Shown here: piece by piece, positions 28,323-54,666 of the stretch
How positions within the stretch are numbered: the stretch's first letter is position 1
Layout of the letters: every line of letters starts with the position of its first letter
Assembly: GCA_949152475.1 (NCBI GenBank)
Contig: OX424555.1
Span: 61,299,977-61,363,976, forward strand
Reading direction: 5' to 3'
DNA length: 64,000 nt
Source of the DNA: Terebella lapidaria
Taxonomy: Eukaryota; Annelida; Polychaeta; Terebellida; Terebellidae
Notes under the pieces: generated by a model
Database searches by the model: none
What the model was told of the DNA's origin: nothing
The model's input: only the letters and a program-made list of their open reading frames with translations
Made by a program: the position numbers and the translations under genes

Positions 28323-28395
28323 GGGGGATTAGCTCAAATGGTAGAGCGCTCGCTTAGCATGCGAGAGGCACCGGGATCGATACCCGGATTCTCCA
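28323..28395 (+). tRNA. tRNA-Ala (anticodon AGC)
   Basis: A complete 73-nt cloverleaf. The acceptor stem is GGGGGAT with ATTCTCC and discriminator A. The D stem is GCTC/GAGC. The anticodon stem is CTCGC/GCGAG around TTAGCAT, so the anticodon is AGC. The T stem is CCGGG/CCCGG. Acceptor pair 3-70 is G:U, the identity element of alanyl-tRNA synthetase. No CCA is encoded and no intron is present, as expected for a nuclear gene. A T-rich run from 28399 (TTATTTTTTTTTC) can act as the RNA polymerase III terminator. The A and B boxes are the D- and T-arm sequences themselves. Confidence 0.97.
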
Positions 28396-28471: not shown

Positions 28472-30426
28472 ATAAGGATTAGATCTACCATATTTCCTTT
28501 ACAAGATATAATTAATTGCTAAACAACTGTTTTGTGTAAACCTGCAGCATTGCTGTATTTAGTGTAGGCCTAAGGGCTTAAGCTGTATGTTGAATATGCG
28601 TTGATTTTCCACAGAATACCCAAATTAGGCATATGACCGGCAGTTAAATGTTCATTAATTATGCAAATAGTTTTCATGCATGCTTCTATCACCAACTGCA
28701 ATCGCGAACAAGCTTCACAAGAAAATTGTCAAGCCTACTGACAATGAGCAATTGAGTTTAGAGGGGGCCTAACCCTACTGGGCTATAGGCCGGCCTATAC
28801 GCCCTGGCATAAGGTATATGCCTATATATACATGTAGATCTACCAATAATGTATAGCGGCATAAGCCAATAATGAGTGTGTCATGAATAAGATAATAAAT
28901 TACAAGTATAATAAGCGTAGGCTACATATATTAATTGTTGAGCAAATTGTACTTGTATATAAAGGTCCAATAAACCCCTATAGCCTATTCCTATTTAATT
29001 CTATCCCAGAAACTAATTTACACATTTTTTGACGGGTATAATAATTTGAATTTGATCACTTAAAGCCAGTCAAGGTCCCACATATTATTGTGTCAAATTC
29101 AAGATCACCAAATACATAATTAGGCCTAACATATAGGCCTAATTATGCCTATGCCTATAGCTGTTCAGCTTTAGGTAAGCTGTATATTCAACATACAGCT
29201 TACCTAACACCAACGTATATTCAAGACTTTCGTCTCACATATTTTGAGGTGGATATATGAAGTTGAGTTCTCAATGTAGGCCTAATTGTTACTCCTTATG
29301 TGCATATGAACCCGATTATAATATATATGTCTTAATATGGCTTCCTTTACGCCATGTTGTTCATGAATTAGCTACAGTCACACCAAAGCCGGATCCTATA
29401 CGGATTACCCGCACCACCTATGCAGGATCATCCAGGACTAAGATATGTCTAAATCTGCGGCGTGGTCAGGGGTGGGTGCAAAAGGGGTCGACGACCCCTG
29501 ACCCTGCATTGATCACATCGATCATCCCAGACCCAACGCGGGAGTAGCCTATACTGTACGTACGGATGAACACGGATCCAAACACGGCAACTCCACGGAT
29601 CAGCTTGGACCACCTCGGATCCAACATTACAGTGTCATCAGGGATGCATGGTCCGGAACGCCCAGGATCCATCTAAATCCGCTACTCTTATAGTAGTTTC
29701 AACAGTTTCCATCAAAGAAGCGGTCTCGTAGCTATGCTCAGAGAAGAACGCGCGAAGATATAAGAACAAGCATAAAGACGAACGGCCTCTGGTCGGTGAG
29801 CTAAAAAAAAACCAGTTCTCTGAATTCTGATTGGCCATTCTCATTTTCTCAATTTGAGGGGATTGAAATACGCTGATTGGCATGATTGTTCATCAATTTT
29901 ACAGAGTTTCTATAATTAGGCATATATATGAGACTAGTTATCTAGTTGTAGGCCTATTACTCGAGCCCGGCACTCTGGGAATTTACCGGGGATTAAACCT
30001 ATTATTATATATCAGAAATAAATAGTATATATCATAAATTAATAACTCTAATGACTTTCTGATGCTGATATTATTTATTGCCGATCCGTTTGGCTGCTGG
30101 ATTATGTAGCATCATGATGCATGCAGTTTCCACCGATCAACTCTCTTTCTCCCCTCGACAGCTTGGACATACGGAATCAAACAGCTTCTCACTACACCCG
30201 CCATAAACCAGGCAATTCCTATGATTAGGCCTACTAATCATTGGGCCTAGATATATGCCCATATTGTTCACGTACGTATTTATATATGCCTACTATCAAT
30301 ACTATGTATAGGCCCTACTGCGGAATTATTCGTCCATAGAGTATGGCATACCATTTAATCCATCTCTGTCTGACACAGCAGGCTATAGAAGAACAAATAG
30401 CATATATAAAGTAATAAAAATTAATG
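28472..30426. other. Intergenic, no protein gene seen; one short perfect hairpin
   Basis: AT-rich sequence with many AGGCCTA words. At 29172-29206 TAGGTAAGCTGTAT and its exact complement ATACAGCTTACCTA flank a 7-base loop. This hairpin is too short for a typical microRNA precursor. The 96-codon frame at 29257 and its opposite-strand overlaps show no domain. The stretch 29390-29660 repeats the word GGATCC but has no other structure I can name. Confidence 0.4.
30416..30420 (-). terminator. RNA polymerase III terminator of tRNA-Ala(TGC)
   Basis: On the minus strand a TTTTT run lies six bases beyond the 3' end of the tRNA gene. Confidence 0.65.
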
Positions 30427-30498
30427 TGGAGATGCCGGGGATCGAACCCGGGACCTTTCACATGCAAAGCGAACGCTCTACCGCTGAGCTACATCCCC
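30427..30498 (-). tRNA. tRNA-Ala (anticodon TGC)
   Basis: A 72-nt cloverleaf read on the minus strand. The acceptor stem is GGGGATG with CATCTCC and discriminator A. The D stem is GCTC/GAGC. The anticodon stem is TTCGC/GTGAA with one G:U pair around TTTGCAT, so the anticodon is TGC. The T arm is CCGGG-TTCGATC-CCCGG. The 3-70 pair is G:U, the alanine identity element. No intron and no encoded CCA. It lies 2.03 kb from the AGC isoacceptor and points the opposite way. Confidence 0.97.
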
Positions 30499-34500: not shown

Positions 34501-37500
34501 CCATGTAGTAATAGATTATTCACTAGTACTACAGTTGTTATGATATTTGTATTGGCCTATAATTTCCTGAACTTGTGGGATAATCAGTCTTTTTCCAAAT
34601 ATATATTTCCAGAGACAGTGAAGGTGAGACTGTCCCAAAGCTTCGGAAAACATCGAGTGTAGTCGTTGAGCAGCCAAATGATAACAAAATTGTTCTGGAC
34701 AGTGTGCCTGATCAGGCATTGAATATGGAAGAAGTAAGTGTAGCATTGATATTGATGATGTGATAAAGTGCTACTGAAGAAACTCAGCCAATATTCGTCC
34801 TATTATCACTGATAGATTCGTTGACATGACATATATTTTGACAGTTGGACGAGTGGCCATTTGAAAGCTTCTGTGAGGTCCTGATGAATGACCTGTTCCA
34901 CTCGTCATGGGAGAGACGTCACGGGGCGGCAGTCGGTCTGCGTGAGGTCCTGAAACAGCATGGGGACGGGGCAGGCAAGGCTCTCGACTACAGCGTTGAC
35001 CAGGTATGGAGAGGTCCTCAAACAGCATGGGGACGGGGCGGGCAAGGCTCTTGACTACAGCGTCGACCAGGTATGGAGAGGTCCTAAACAGCATGGGGAC
35101 GGGGCGGGCAAGGCTCTTGACTACAGCGTCGACCAGGTATGGAGAGGTCCTCAAACAGCATGGGTACGGGGCGGGCAAGGCTCCTGACTACAGCGTCGAC
35201 CAGGTATGGAGAGGTCCTAAACAGCATGGGGACGGGGCGGGCAAGGCTCTAGACTACAGCGTCGACCAGGTATGGAGAGGTCCTCAAACAGCATGGGTAC
35301 GGGGCGGGCAAGGCTCTTGACTACAGCGTCGACCAGGTATGGAGAGGTCCTCAAACAGCATGGGGACGGGGCGGGCAAGGCTCTTGACTACAGCGTCGAC
35401 CAGGTATGGAGAGGTCCTCAAACAGCATGGGTATGCGGCGGGCAAGGCTCCTGACTACAGCGTCGACCAGGTATGGAGAGGTCCTAAACAGCATGGGGAC
35501 GGGGCGGGCAAGGCTCCTGACTACAGCGTCGACCAGGTATGGAGAGGTCCTAAACAGCATGGGGACGGGGCGGGCAAGGCTCTTGACTAAAGCGTTGACC
35601 AGGTATGGAGAGGTCCTAAAACAGCATGGGGACGGGGCGGGCAAGGCTCTTGACTACAGCGTCGACCAGGTATGGAGAGGTCCTAAAACAGCATGGGGCG
35701 GGGCGGGCAAGGCTCTAGACTACAGCGTTGACCAGGTATGGAGAGGTCCTAAAACAGCATGGGGACGGGCGGGCAAGGCTCTAGACTACAGGGTCGACCA
35801 GGTATGGCGTGGACCTTTGACAGCATGGGGACAGGGGCGGGTGGGGCTCTCGACTACAGCGTCGACCAGGTATGGAGAGGTCCTAAAACAGCATGGGGAC
35901 GGGGCGGGCAAGGCTCTTGACCAAAGCGTTGACCAGGTATGGAGAGTTCTTGAAACAGCATGGGGACGGGACGTGAAAGGCTCTCGACTACAGCGTCGAC
36001 CAGGTATGGAGAGGTCCTCAAACAGCATGGGGACGGGGTGGGCAAGGCGCTTGACTAAAGCGTCGACCAGGTATGGAGAGTTCTTGAAACAGCATGGGGA
36101 CGGGGCGGGCGAGGCTCTAGACTACAGCGTCGACCAGGTATGGAGAGGTCCTCAAACAGCATGGGGACGGGGCGGGCAAGGCTCTTGACTAAAGCGTCGA
36201 CCAGGTATGGAGAGTTCTTGAAACAGCATGGGGACGGGACGGGAAAGGCTCTCGACTACAGCGTCGACCAGGTATGGAGAGGTCCTCAAACAGCATGGGG
36301 AGTGTACGAGCAAGGATCTAGTATGGATGTAACTAAATTCAATGCAGTAGCACTGCAGTAACTGGGAGTCACTATCAATTCTTGCTTTTCCAGATGAATG
36401 CGGTTCATCAGCTGTACCTGGAAGATTTGGCAGTCCGTCTGATCTCAGTCCTGGCTCTTGATCGATTCGGAGACTATGTTTCTGATGAGGTGTGTTTTGT
36501 TCAAATAAATACACCCAGTTTTCAGAGAATACTACACAATTAAAAACAATGGCAAAAACGTTAACTCGAAATTCACATTTCTGTGTCAATATTTATTCTA
36601 CATCAGGTAGTAGCACCAGTTCGGGAGTCGTGTGCGCAGACACTTGGTGTCACTGTACAACACATGATGAGTCATGGGGTCGCTACTTCAGTACAGGTGC
36701 TAATACAACTGCTAAGTCAGCCCCAGTGGGAGGTCCGACACGGAGGCCTGCTTGGGCTCAAGTACCTCTTAGCAGTCAGAAAGGTGGGGTGTACTTGGGA
36801 GCAGTTCGATGTTTGAGAATTGAAGCTTTTGTCTAGTTTCTTACTGAAAAATTTTAATTATACACCTCCAGTATATTTCATTGTAAACCTTGTTTTCAAG
36901 GACCAGACAGTACGATTGTTGCCGGTGGTTTTACCTGTGGTGTTCAGTGGTCTCCAGGATAGAGACGATGATGTGAGGGCCGTGGCAGCCGCGGCGTTGC
37001 TACCGGTTACTGAGGAACTCATCACCTCCCAGCCACTGCTCGTCAGTATCAGGATTGTAACACCTTCGTAGTTGGGATTTCTATGTCTGCAATATGTATC
37101 ACGGAGCATTATATAATGAGTAAAGTTTATAACATTATGATGTTTTCCAGGTTCCACAGATTACGCTGTGTCTGTGGCACACGTTACTGGATTTAGACGA
37201 CCTGACTGCGTCCACCAATAGCATCATGACTCTGTTGTCTTCCCTTCTATCCCACCCCAGTGTAGCAAGTAACAGGTATGACAACAGGCTCATGTGCTGT
37301 TTCTATGTGCCATTATTTCTTTGATTTCACATTGATTATATGGTGAAATCTTTGATTGAATGTAATGCCTCAATCGTATTGCTCTTGCAGTGTTATTACT
37401 CAGTCACTGACTGAATTTGTGCCAAGACTGTGGCCTTTTCTTAGTCACAACATTCCGTCCGTCCGGAAAGCCGCATTAGAAACCGTTCAAGCTCTACTCA

Positions 37501-49030: not shown

Positions 49031-52000
49031 TCATTTTGCAACAGAGAGAGGTCTTTCTTTTTGCAACTGTGCCTGAAACAGACAAAAGGAAATTTGGATC
49101 AATGAAGCCACACAAGAACCCATAAATATGTTCCGATTGTCCTTGCAAATCCCTACATATGTTAGAACAGTGATATTCCTTCATACCATTTTCCAGCGGA
49201 TGAGACGGACCCAGTGTCGAGTTTCATCATCTGTGGCAGCATAAATCAGGAAAGTCCGCCAGGGAAATACCAACCTGGAATAAAGATGCCAAATACTAGT
49301 GGCTAGAAAAATTTATAATCCCAGTCACAGTTCTCCATAACCCATACTGTAAAGCCATTTAAGTTCGCTGGCACAAATTTTCGTGTTTTTTGCGATTAGG
49401 CCATGTTCGCGGTCGTTTAATTTCCGTCTTGAACAATTTCTTCATAGCAATGTGGGTTGTCATCAGAAATGTTTCGCGTCCATTTAATTTCGCGATTTTT
49501 AGGTTACCGGACCTTTGGTCCGATAACCTATTGCCATGGCGTTGCGTCCGGCGTCCGTCGTCCGTCCGTCCGTTCACATTTTAGGTTACCGGACCTTTGG
49601 TCCGATAACCTATTGGCATGGCGTTGCGTCCGTCGTCCGTCCGTCCGTCCGTCCGTCCGTCCGTCCGTCCGTCCGTCCGTCCGTCCGTCCGTCCGTCCGG
49701 CGTTAACATTTTTATCTTTAAAGTTAACGATCGAATCTTTCTGAAATTTTGCACAAAAATGCCTAAAAATATTTTGAGAAGGAGGTATTTTTTTGTTTTT
49801 TGATTTTCGCATTTTTTTCAAAATGGCGGCCGTTTTTGTCGAAAAACGCTCAATTTTGGACTTTGACGGCCATTTTCTCAAAAACTGTCTGATCAGTTTT
49901 GAGTTTTTGGTTTCAAAAGATTCCCCTCATATACCTCTGTGATATGTATAAGTTTGGTTGCCCTAAATCTGCCGGTTTCCGTGTGGCGGCCATTTTGAAT
50001 TTTTGGCGGGTCGGCGAAAAAAAAATTTTTCGCCCCAAATCGCATTACTATCCATTTTGGGCCATTTCTAGGGCAAAAAAAATTTTTCACCCTTTGAAAA
50101 AAATTTTACACTTAGAAAATTTTCGGCACTTTTTCCCTTCATAATGGGAGCTGTCCGGACTGTACTCATAGAACGCTTGAAGATAGAGCTTAGAAATTGG
50201 CACTTTCAAATGGGAAGTCATATATGGCGACTTGTGTGGTGACCTTGAATTTGACCTTGGATGACCTTGAAAGGTCAAAACAGCCATTTTTGGGTCGAAA
50301 AACGCTCAAATTTGCACCTGGTCTGTATTTTCTCAAAAACTCTCTGATCAGTTTTGAGATTTTTGCTTAGAAAGATTCCTCTTATATACCTCTGTGACGT
50401 GTATAAGTTTTGTTGCCCTTGAATCGCCGATCTCAGTGTGGCGGCCATTTTCAATTTTTGATGAGTCGGCGAAAAAAAATTTTTTCGCCCCAAATAACAT
50501 CACTATCCATTTTGGGCCATTTCTAGGCAAAAAAAAATGTTCACCCTTTGAAAAAAATTTTGGACTTGGAAAATTTTCGGCACTTTTTTCCTTCATAATG
50601 GGAGCTGTCAGGACTGTACTCATAGAACGCTTGAAGATGGAGCTTAGAAATTGGCACTTTCAAATGGGAAGTCATATATGGCGACTTGTGTGGTGACCTT
50701 GAATTTGACCTTGGATGACCTTGAAAGGTCAAAACAGCCATTTTGGGGTCAAAAAATGCCCAGATTTGCCTTTGTAGATGAAATGCTTGCAGATAGAGCT
50801 CATGTTTGCATTATGAACATATAGGAAGACATATATGGCACAACTAATGATGACCTTGAACTTGACGTCAGATGACCTTGAGTGCCAAATGTCTGACTTG
50901 GAATGTGTAAATTGACCTGAGCGGCCTAAACGGTTCCACCCAACATATAGAATATCAAATGCCGCACACATACATGTAATGGTTACATCGAAGTTCATAC
51001 GGATGACCTTGATTGGTAAATCCCAAGGTCATATGTTTACACTGCGAACCTTGATTGGTAAATCTCAAGGTCTGTTACCTGCCAATGCTGCCATGGCCAA
51101 ACCAAAATTGTCCGGTAACCTATCTTAGCCTTTGGGCTAATTTTTATCTTTAAAGTTTATGATGGAATATTTCTGAAATTTTGCACAAAAATACCTAAAA
51201 ATATTTCCAGGGAAGGTTTTTTTTAGTTTTCTGATTTTCCAATTTTTTTCAAAATGGCGGCCGTTTTCGTCGAAAAATGGCCAATTTTGGAGTTTGACAG
51301 TCATTTTCTCAAAATCTTATCAGTAACTTTTTTTCTTATTGATGCATAACACTCCTCTTATGTGCCCCTGTGACATGTATAAATTTTGTTGCCCTTGAAT
51401 CGCTCGAAGTGGGCCATTTTGGGCCCAAACTCGGCCCAAATGGGACTCTCCCATGTTAAATTCTCCTATGCTTTATAATGGGACAAAATTAAGCCTAATA
51501 TCTCACTTAATATTGAGATTAGAGACTAGGAATCACTTGTGCACATATAGGAAATGATATATCCTGAATATTCTGGTGACCTTGAATTTGACCTCTGACC
51601 TCGGTTTCAAGGTCAGAGGGCCATTTTCGTCGAAAAATGGCCAATTTTGGACTTTGACGGTCGTTTTCTCAGAATCCGTTCAGTAACTATTTTTCTTATC
51701 AATGCATAACACTCCTCATATGTACCACTGTGACACGTATAAATTTCGTTGCCCTTGAATCGCTCGAAGTAGGCCATTTTGGGCCCAAACTCGGCCCAAA
51801 TGGGACTTTCCCATGTTAAATTCTCCTATGCTTTACAATGGGACACATTAAGCCTAATATCTCACTTAATATTGAGATTAGAGACTAAGAATCAATTGTG
51901 CACATATAGTAAATGATATATGCTGAATATTCTCAGGGTCTTGAATTTGACCTCTGACCTCGGTTTCAAGGTCAGAGCACAAAATGTCTAATATCTTGCT

Positions 52001-54666
52001 TATTAACGACTTTACAGCTTAGGAACCAATTGTGGACATATAGGAAATGATATATGCCGAATATTCTGATGACCTTGAATTTGACCTTTGACCTCATTTT
52101 CAAGGTCACACCACAGAATGGCTAATATCTACCTTATTATCGATTTTACAGCTTAGGGATCAATTGTGGACATATAGGAAATGATATATGCTGAATATTC
52201 ATGTGACCTTGAATTTGACTTCTGACCTCAGTTTCAAGGTCAGAGCACAAAATGGCTAATATCTTGCTTATTATTGACTTTACAGTGTAGGAATCAATTA
52301 TGAACTTATAGGAAATGATATATGCAGATTATTGTCATGACCTTGAATTTGACCTTTGACCTCCTTTTCAAGGTCGCAGGACAAAATAGCTAATATCTCG
52401 CTTATTATCGATTTTACAGCTTAGGAATCAATTATGAACATATAGGAAATGATATATGCTGAATATTGCTATGACCTTGAATTTGACCTTTGACCTCATT
52501 TTCAAGGTCAGAGAACGAAATGGGTAATATCTCGCTTTTTATCGACTTTACAGCTTAGCAATCAATTGGGGACATATAGAAAATGATATATTCTGAACAT
52601 TGTCATGACCTTGAACTTCACCTTTGACCTAATTTCCAAGGTCACAGGACAAAATGGCTAATGGCTTGCTCATTATGGACTTTACAGCTTAGGAATCAAT
52701 TATGAACATATAGGAAATGATATATGCTGAATATTGCTATGACCTTGAATTCGACCTTTGACGTCATTTTCAAGGTCACAGGACATAATGGCTAATATCT
52801 CGCTTATTATTGACTTCACAGCTTAGGAATTAATTGTGGACATACTAGAAATGACATATGCCGAATATTATCGTGTCCTTGAATTGACCAATGACGTTTT
52901 TTAAAGGTCACGGGAAAAAATACTAATATCTAAAATATATATTGTCCGGTAACCTTTCTTAGCCCTTGGGCTAATTTTTTGATTTGCGAAATTCGCGAAA
53001 ATAAAAGGTCGTGAATAATTCGTGGCTTTACAGTACTGCACGGGATTATAAATGTTTGAAAAACCTGAATTTACGTCAAGTACATAATTATAGACATGGC
53101 TGCTGACTTGAAGCAGTTGTCCCGGTCGTTCTCCTCGCAGGGTGTACACTCCTTACACTCCCGCAAGTCCAAGATACGAATCGGATCGTTGGCACTCTGG
53201 TCCCGGAAATACTTCAACTCATTCTTGACTAGGACGAACCATCGCGTCTTCCACGACTGCTAAACATAATCAGTACATGTAATCAGATGAAATGTTTGCA
53301 GACCATATAGATATCATTGTGATGACTAGCAAGTCAGTAAAAAATACAGGTTCAAATTCATATGATATTGACCTTAATTTTCCCTCCTTGTTTGGTCAAG
53401 TAGCCAGATTTGGATCCAACCTGAAAATTGAGAAAATTTACAACCTAAAACTAGGTTATGATATGTGAAATGACAGTGACTGTCAAATCAGTGATATCAA
53501 TTTTTGAGTCAACCAAATGTCTAAAATCTCACCTCTAAATGTGGAGATCCCTCTTCACTGTGAGTGTCTTTGCCAAACTCCTGATGTATTTTCACATGGT
53601 CATAATGCCCATGTTCCTTGACATGTCGAGGATATGGAAACTTCAATACTGTTAATACCCCTGGAGTCAAAGAAGCAGATGACTTTCAACTAGAAATGGC
53701 ATGGGAAGTTTCAGTTTAGTCTAGAACGAGTAAGTAACTTTATTTCATACTGATTATCATATGTTGAGCTGGTGTGCACTGTTATGGGAACTAATGAGGG
53801 CTGCGAAAACAAATCCCAATTAAGGCTAGTCCTCTACTGTACCTACCTGACTTCCCTGTCACTACCATTACATTGGAATAGACCACATTTGCACCCACCT
53901 GACTCCCCTGCCACAAGTGGTCGATTCTCAAAGTGTTCTGTGAATTCCCTCAGGTTCTTGAATGTTGCCTTGCCGAACATGTAATGATGAGTATCCCATT
54001 GAATGTTGTAGTGCTTTACTGCATCCTTACACCTGCGTAAAGATGAACATTTTGAGGCAGTTCATTTTCATAATCACTTCCGACCCAATTTTCATGGTTT
54101 TGTTTTACGAACACTCATCAAACAGCATGGTTCTACGGTGAGTTTTCAACTAAAATTGTTAAATTCATACACATAGATTGCAAGATTCCGAACACATTTC
54201 AGTATCCACCCACCAGTCACCATATATCGTGCCATGGTTACAGACCTGATTGAGAGTGCGAACTCGCCCTGTTTGGAGCTGGGCCGCATCAGGTACGCAC
54301 CATCCTGTCCGTTCTGGATCAACAAGCTCTCCGCTATGTGACGATCGGCATTCGGGTGGTACCAGCTACATGGAAATACAATAGATGCCCAACAGTGATG
54401 TTTGCCACACACTGCCGGCTATTCTTATTTTGCTATGGCTGATATATGTCATCATCCATTCTGAGCATTGTGATTATGGTCACGAAAGACTGACTGCTAA
54501 AATTCCTGTATATTACACTAAAGAGTACTGTACAAAGCAGTTTTCATGAATCACAGAAGAGTATGGGGGTAGGGGTGGGTGGGGGAGGGTACTTATAGAT
54601 TGTACTCAACGTGTATCTCACGTACCTTAAAGCTTCAATCTCGGAGTTTCTTATTGCACCAGACAT
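49031..54666 (-). CDS. DAPP1: DAPP1/Bam32-like adaptor with SH2 and PH domains (8 coding exons)
   Basis: DAPP1 links PI3-kinase and tyrosine kinase signalling. Its PH domain brings it to the plasma membrane through 3-phosphoinositides and its SH2 domain binds phosphotyrosine. Exons, 5' to 3' on the minus strand: 54626-54666, 54246-54365, 53899-54032, 53533-53660, 53373-53420, 53108-53259, 49187-49274, 49031-49072. All phases fit and give 753 nt, 250 residues plus stop (my recollection for human is 280). The SH2 domain spans about residues 15-103: it starts WYH, has the phosphotyrosine-binding Arg41 in YLMRPSS, and continues FALSIR. The PH domain spans about 142-240: GYLTKQGG, then WKTRWF (Lys151, Lys161, Arg163 fit the K-Xn-K/R-x-R lipid-binding pattern), and it ends with a conserved Trp helix (HWVRLIRWK). 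Tyr118 sits where vertebrate DAPP1 has its phosphorylated Tyr139. The N-terminus is shorter than in vertebrates. Intron 6 is 3.8 kb and full of nested repeats. The gene is tail to tail with BTAF1. Confidence 0.93.
49583..51140 (+). mobile_element. Hairpin-ended TTTT-inserting repeat, inner copy (I)
   Basis: A complete 1.56-kb copy inserted in copy II at a T run, with TTTT before and TTTTT after. It has the left foldback AGGTTACCGGACC-TTT-GGTCCGATAACC, a (GTCC)n tract, then AAAATGGCGGCCGTTTTTGTC. Two related segments of about 450 bp follow (about 49890-50330 and 50340-50790), each with CATTTTGGGCCATTTCTAGG, TCATATATGGCGACTTGTGT and paired GACCTTGAA words. It ends GTCCGGTAACCT...TTAGCCTTTGGGCTAA. 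The part from 50388 matches the copy at 23966-24810. No coding potential. Confidence 0.75.
49627..49699. repeat. (GTCC)n microsatellite
   Basis: About 17 nearly perfect GTCC units inside the inner element copy. The outer copy has a shorter GTCC stretch at the same place, so the tract belongs to the family. It creates spurious frames of SVRP repeats. Confidence 0.9.
51935..52925 (+). repeat. 134-bp tandem repeat, about 7-8 units
   Basis: GACCTTGAA starts at 52071, 52205, 52339, 52473, 52607 and 52741, with degenerate forms near 51937 and 52874. The step is exactly 134 bp each time. Each unit reads GACCTTGAATTTGACC, then TTTCAAGGTCA, ATGGCTAATATCTCGCTTAT, TTTACAGCTTAGGAATCAAT and ACATATAGGAAATGATATAT. 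Two related longer segments precede it (51150-51600 and 51620-51935). Each unit carries an inverted pair of TGACCTTGA and TCAAGGTCA words. Confidence 0.92.

What the first reader, a model, noticed from the sequence alone, without database searches (positions are those of the whole stretch)
34944..36302. A host exon end plus its splice donor has become a 20-copy minisatellite
The repeat unit is exactly the last 60 coding bases of BTAF1 exon 8 plus 7 intron bases. Intron 8 therefore starts with 19 further intact CAG|GTATGG donors at 66-68 bp steps, all matching the true one. Only the first donor keeps the protein open: reading into the next unit meets a stop. Every later donor is a potential decoy that would send the transcript to decay. 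Copy number could thus tune BTAF1 output, or the splicing machinery must strictly choose the first donor.
Basis: partly seen in the sequence, partly recalled or inferred. Interest (0 to 1): 0.88.

Follow-up and report, generated by a model that had tools for sequence, protein, structure and literature searches.

The report
Repeated splice-donor array in BTAF1 intron
In an unidentified genome, the end of one BTAF1 exon together with its splice-donor signal has been copied head to tail about twenty times into the following intron, leaving one correct donor and nineteen identical decoys; this resembles two known human cases and would be a good natural test of how cells choose between equal splice sites.

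Summary
Window 34944-36278 holds 20 units of 66-68 bp, each the last 60 coding bases of BTAF1 exon 8 plus 7 intron bases. All 20 keep CAG|GTATGG; a decayed 21st follows. Only donor 1 keeps the frame open: the 19 later donors all include the TGA at 35052. The coding copy differs from the intronic consensus at four sites, all synonymous, so unit 1 is the real exon. Intron 8 is 1390 bp; 23 other modelled introns are 80-382 bp. The last donor would give an ordinary 122-bp intron, the first an ordinary 159-bp exon, so intron and exon definition predict opposite choices. Most likely this is a by-product minisatellite: donor 1 is used and leaks are destroyed (inferred; no RNA data). Copy-number tuning is untested. 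Preservation of the decoys is not clearly beyond chance (6 of 68 equal windows as invariant). The kind is known: human ABCA7 intron 18 VNTR and IFI6 minisatellite.

The parts
34845..35003 (+). BTAF1 exon 8 (53 codons, phase 0 at both ends); its last 60 bases are the coding part of unit 1
   Evidence: gene model by anchors and frame; Mot1 homology of joined exon 7-10 peptides, E 5.6e-36 to PDB 7zb5
34944..35010 (+). unit 1: coding copy, 60 exon bases + 7 intron bases; true donor after 35003
   Evidence: 4 of 4 differences from the intronic consensus synonymous
35011..36278 (+). units 2-20: intronic copies, each with an intact CAG|GTATGG (last exon-like base 35070 ... 36271)
36279..36327 (+). 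unit 21: decayed remnant, first 23 bases match, exon tail deleted, ends in CTA|GTATGGA (GT at 36321); may mark the start of the pre-expansion intron
   Evidence: sequence; U1 duplex -2.8 kcal/mol
35052..35054 (+). TGA met in frame after any donor later than donor 1, or if the intron is retained
   Evidence: 19 of 19 later donors; retention follows from the same reading
35004..36393 (+). intron 8 (1390 bp); from donor 20 it would be 122 bp, from the remnant donor 73 bp
36394..36489 (+). BTAF1 exon 9; its acceptor TTTTCCAG (36386-36393) lies outside the array

Best explanation
A minisatellite born when the end of exon 8 and its donor were tandemly duplicated, then expanded in intron 8 by unequal exchange or replication slippage. 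SHOWN from sequence: the array, 20 intact donors, a single productive donor, coding constraint on unit 1, and an intron 8 longer than 23 other modelled introns. INFERRED: the spliceosome mostly uses donor 1, because the acceptor of exon 8 pairs across a normal-sized exon (159 bp) with the first donor it meets and because that donor is transcribed first; occasional use of donors 2-20 gives transcripts with a stop in unit 2 that are degraded. The array is then a tolerated by-product with a small cost, not an evolved regulator.
For: Donors are identical in sequence and U1 pairing, sixth of 24 in the gene by U1 energy and third of 24 by a donor matrix, so donor 1 is good but not intrinsically favoured over the decoys. 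Exon 8 with donor 1 is 159 bp; 19 of 23 modelled exon spans are 86-177 bp (the other four contain unmodelled introns and were dropped), and donor 2 already gives 226 bp. Four of four unit-1 differences are synonymous (39 of 180 random single changes are; about 0.002 for four) while intronic copies carry one-base length changes and stops. A fold of units 2-3 is no stronger than shuffles (z = 0.27). Diverged 3' units, more alike 5' units and a two-unit pattern at the 3' end are usual minisatellite turnover. In human ABCA7 the donor of the second unit was used in about 2% of isoforms (PMC5954066 passages).
Against: The other 23 modelled introns are 80-382 bp, so this gene could be spliced by intron definition, which would favour donor 20 (122-bp intron). 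SRSF1 is reported to promote, and hnRNP A1 to oppose, intron-proximal donors (PMC5585400 passages), so the choice may be regulated. Use of donor 1 is inferred from the reading frame only. Nine invariant donor columns could mean selection (0.007 by column shuffle). In ABCA7 abnormal isoforms together, mostly exon 19 skipping, exceeded the canonical one in 90% of cortex BA10 cases, so such an array need not be harmless.
Confidence: 0.62

Rival explanations
1. Copy-number dial: decoy donors compete for the acceptor, so more copies mean more unproductive splicing and less BTAF1.
For: All 19 decoys equal the true donor in U1 pairing and all are unproductive; donors 17-20 would give introns of 323-122 bp, the size usual in this gene; ABCA7 expression falls as its donor-bearing array lengthens.
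Against: No RNA or population data; in ABCA7 the second-unit donor was used independently of array length; donor conservation is not clearly beyond chance.
Confidence: 0.18
2. Recursive or re-splicing ladder: each intronic unit runs from GT to CAG, so donor 1 could be spliced to a later CAG|GT and regenerate the donor, or an extended exon could be re-spliced to the normal product, making the array harmless.
For: Every full unit boundary reads CAG|GT; unit 2 holds one YTNAY motif at 35051 (only unit 2 was scanned); acceptor scores of CAG|GT (-2.0 to 0.0) overlap the weakest acceptors of the gene, exon 8's own being -0.8; multi-copy AGGT duplications spliced as introns are reported in fission yeasts (passage in PMC4974935).
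Against: No pyrimidine tract; 21 of 24 modelled gene acceptors score above -0.3; a 67-base intron is shorter than the shortest modelled here (80); the motif's A sits only 16 bases before the end of the AG.
Confidence: 0.05
3. Assembly artefact: array inflated or misplaced by the assembler.
For: No reads and no second assembly available.
Against: 19 distinct sequences among 20 units, with graded divergence and a decayed edge; no unit found elsewhere in the window.
Confidence: 0.07
4. A recent intron gain by duplication of an AGGT-containing exon segment (Rogers/Hellsten model).
For: The duplicated segment contains CAGGT.
Against: The likely acceptor (TTTTCCAG, 36386-36393) lies outside the repeat, so the intron is not bounded by two copies.
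Confidence: 0.03

Closest known systems
ABCA7 intron 18 VNTR (human, 25-bp unit; PMC5954066, passages read)
   Same: The array begins at an exon's donor and the unit's first two bases are the donor GT; use of the next unit's donor retains one unit, shifts the frame and gives a premature stop subject to NMD.
   Different: There the unit is 25 bp and described as lying in the intron; here it carries 60 coding bases plus the donor, so each decoy has nearly the whole exon-end context. RNA use and length polymorphism are shown there and unknown here.
IFI6 (G1P3, 6-16) minisatellite (human; Turri 1995 seen only as a citation, plus one sentence in PMC4526556)
   Same: A minisatellite provides several splice donors for one exon.
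   Different: By the citing paper, two downstream repeat units serve as donors for protein isoforms; here every later donor meets a stop. The 12-bp unit size of IFI6 is recalled, not read.
Intron gain by AGGT tandem duplication (ATP2A1/2, fission yeast genes, potato RdRp; passages of PMC4974935)
   Same: Tandem duplication of a segment holding AGGT; in fission yeast several copies of a 24-bp segment.
   Different: Here an intron with its own acceptor lies downstream of the array; the array lengthens that intron rather than creating it.

Membership tests
Donor-spanning minisatellite/VNTR (ABCA7, IFI6 kind) | tandem array that starts at or spans an exon's 5' splice site | tested here: met
Donor-spanning minisatellite/VNTR (ABCA7, IFI6 kind) | repeat units carry copies of the donor | tested here: met
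   20 of 20 full units; remnant unit 21 weak
Donor-spanning minisatellite/VNTR (ABCA7, IFI6 kind) | downstream donors used in RNA | not testable with these tools
   no RNA data
Donor-spanning minisatellite/VNTR (ABCA7, IFI6 kind) | length polymorphism | not testable with these tools
   one sequence only; no genome held
AGGT tandem-duplication intron gain | intron bounded by GT of one copy and AG of another | tested here: not met
   modelled acceptor TTTTCCAG lies outside the array
AGGT tandem-duplication intron gain | intron absent in relatives | not testable with these tools
   no relative obtained: 94 fetched loci give only three weak hits (E 0.85-0.88) to exons 8-10
Regulatory (dosage-tuning) VNTR | array length correlates with expression | not testable with these tools
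   no population or RNA data

The most novel reading that the evidence does not exclude
The array is a live dosage device for BTAF1, the remodeller that strips TBP from DNA (function recalled): identical decoys tip a donor choice between exon definition (donor 1, protein) and intron definition (donors near 20, decay), so allele length and the SR/hnRNP balance set BTAF1 output.
Probability: 0.12. Interest if true: 0.8.

Novelty: new member of a known kind. Interest (0 to 1): 0.45.

Why it matters
Twenty donors with identical core sequence and nearly identical 60-base exon context, one acceptor, and only one productive choice: a natural experiment on how competing equal 5' splice sites are resolved. 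Exon definition predicts the first donor; intron definition predicts one of the last. Ordinary junction counting would separate them. The two donor-bearing minisatellites that my searches turned up are in human genes; this one lies in a genome that I could not identify.

Tried and rejected
RNA structure hiding decoys: the fold of units 2-3 has z = 0.27; no inverted repeat of 14 or more with a 9-base seed in 34600-36700; openness of donor 1 ranks 2, 7 and 7 of 20 under three settings, all values low (0.001-0.062). No consistent advantage; rejected as the main explanation.

Selection on decoy donors: column shuffle 0.007, but with neighbouring columns kept together 6 of 68 windows are equally invariant. 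Left inconclusive. Third-position excess of unit-1 differences (4 of 4) against the intronic copies (13 of 29 distinct substitutions): Fisher one-sided 0.058.

The pattern for the unit end found 0 stretches in viral contigs. These collections are viral and prokaryotic, so this says nothing on conservation. The session allowed no first metagenome scan and none was tried. The organism was not identified.

Intron models: 30 anchor gaps examined; 6 dropped (gaps 12, 22, 23, 25, 26, 29) for no or doubtful model, leaving 24 introns; in three (gaps 2, 6, 21) I took the second or third best score by judgement, and some others (for example gap 11) have near-tied alternatives. A first U1 test of the remnant donor was placed one base off; repeated correctly with the same value, -2.8.

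Literature: 10 searches (two searches found nothing). Only open-licence PMC papers were held; Turri 1995 (PMC306954) was not. No paper was read whole: passages of PMC5954066, PMC4974935 and PMC5585400; one sentence and a citation in PMC4526556; one citation each in PMC2572611 and PMC8724738. For BTAF1 with alternative splicing and intron, 12 of 17 papers were listed and no title or abstract start named such an array.

Full report
WHAT IS THERE. The window holds a BTAF1/Mot1 gene on the + strand. Joined peptides of exons 7-10 match six PDB sequences (best 7zb5, 'Helicase-like protein', E 5.6e-36; also 3oc3, 'HELICASE MOT1', E 1.3e-8), N-terminal peptides match HEAT-repeat families and the ATPase exons match Pfam SNF2-rel_dom, E 1.5e-48. 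Exon 8 is 34845-35003, intron 8 is 35004-36393, exon 9 is 36394-36489, phase 0. Calling it exon 8 assumes one upstream first exon that I did not locate. The organism is not identified.

THE ARRAY. TRF reports period 67, 20.3 copies, 34944-36301. Splitting at donors gives 20 units of 66-68 bases and a remnant. Each full unit corresponds to the last 60 coding bases of exon 8 plus GTATGGA (GTATGGC in unit 13). The window has 20 CAGGTATGG on + and 0 on -, all 20 in the array. A blastn of unit 2 found no match outside the array. The 3' edge is unit 21, matching for 23 bases, then diverged and with the exon tail deleted, ending in CTA|GTATGGA, a weak donor (-2.8 kcal/mol). If that GT is the old intron start, the pre-expansion intron was 73 bp; from donor 20 it is 122 bp.

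WHICH COPY IS REAL. Unit 1 differs from the consensus of units 2-20 at unit positions 9, 30, 42 and 54, all third codon positions and all synonymous; 39 of 180 possible single changes are synonymous, so four of four has a chance of about 0.002. The intronic copies have 33 alternative states over 68 columns, with unit lengths of 66-68, in-frame TAA in units 10, 17 and 19, and 13 of 29 distinct substitutions at third positions (against 4 of 4, Fisher 0.058). So unit 1 looks as if it evolved as coding sequence and the others did not.

TURNOVER. The 20 units have 19 distinct sequences. Units 2-13 differ from neighbours by 3.3 positions on average and units 14-20 by 9.0, but 14-20 differ from their second neighbours by only 5.8: in units 15-20, units beginning GAGGTCCT alternate with units beginning GAGTTCTT. 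A more uniform 5' side and a diverged 3' side fit unequal exchange.

SPLICING CONSEQUENCE. All 20 donors have the same U1 pairing energy, -7.7 kcal/mol, sixth best of 24 modelled donors in the gene, third of 24 by matrix. Every donor after the first adds unit 2, where the frame meets TGA at 35052; 19 of 19. The distance from that stop to the exon 8-9 junction is 16 bases for donor 2 and 82-1217 for donors 3-20; further junctions follow in all cases, so decay is expected from general knowledge of NMD, not shown.

THE CONFLICT. Intron 8 is 1390 bp; 23 other modelled introns are 80-382 bp, median 140 (6 of 30 gaps left out). Donor 20 would give a 122-bp intron but a 1427-bp exon; donor 1 gives a 159-bp exon, within the 86-177 bp of 19 of 23 modelled exon spans (the other four contain unmodelled introns). 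Intron definition and exon definition therefore point to opposite ends of the array. PMC5585400 (passages) cites SRSF1 as favouring the intron-proximal and hnRNP A1 the intron-distal donor. Productive BTAF1 needs the most distal of twenty.

WHAT WAS TESTED AND NOT FOUND. No RNA fold that sets donor 1 apart. Donor invariance is 0.007 under column shuffling, but 6 of 68 windows of equal size are invariant, four around the donor and two around CAGCATGGGG; so selection to keep the decoys is not established. The recursive-ladder reading is weak: CAG|GT acceptor scores are -2.0 to 0.0 (an inner CTACAG scores -1.7 to 0.5), while 21 of 24 modelled gene acceptors exceed -0.3; exon 8's own, however, is only -0.8.

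COMPARISON. ABCA7 intron 18 has a 25-bp VNTR whose first two bases are the donor of exon 18; use of a cryptic donor one unit on retains 25 bp and shifts the frame. The two frame-shifting isoforms (exon 18 cryptic acceptor; unit retention) were about 14% and 2%, rose when NMD was blocked with cycloheximide, and did not depend on VNTR size; exon 19 skipping did, and expression fell with length; in 90% of BA10 cases the alternative isoforms together exceeded the canonical one (PMC5954066 passages). IFI6 has a minisatellite with several donors (citation title and one sentence). AGGT duplications can create introns, in fission yeast across several copies (PMC4974935 passages). The present array belongs with the first two; it fails a defining test of the third because the modelled acceptor is outside the repeat.

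VERDICT. Real, correctly described, and of a known kind. The best reading is a tolerated minisatellite with donor 1 used and leak destroyed. Its value is the clean design: one acceptor, twenty equal donors, one productive answer.

Noticed in passing
window 1-23964: A 24-kb satellite of about 638 copies of a 38-bp unit (91% matches), reaching the window start.
   Followed up: no
window 51854-52931; 49838-50769; 49627-49699: About eight copies of a 134-bp tandem unit, a 2 x 454-bp duplication and a CGTC microsatellite.
   Followed up: no
window 53071-53259 and 54146-54418, - strand: A PH domain (E 6.4e-8) and an SH2 domain (E 3.1e-10) on the minus strand, perhaps a DAPP1-like adaptor gene (name recalled, not tested).
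   Followed up: partly
window 28323-28395 (+) and 30426-30498 (-): tRNA-Ala-like sequences (Rfam RF00005); genes or tRNA-derived repeats not decided.
   Followed up: no
window 35877-36278 (units 15-20): Two-unit higher-order pattern in the diverged 3' part of the array.
   Followed up: yes
L001:2151-2354 and L002:2492-2680: Two short IMG/VR contigs encode a BTAF1-like ATPase exon at 76% and 70% identity; they may be stray eukaryotic DNA in a viral collection.
   Followed up: no
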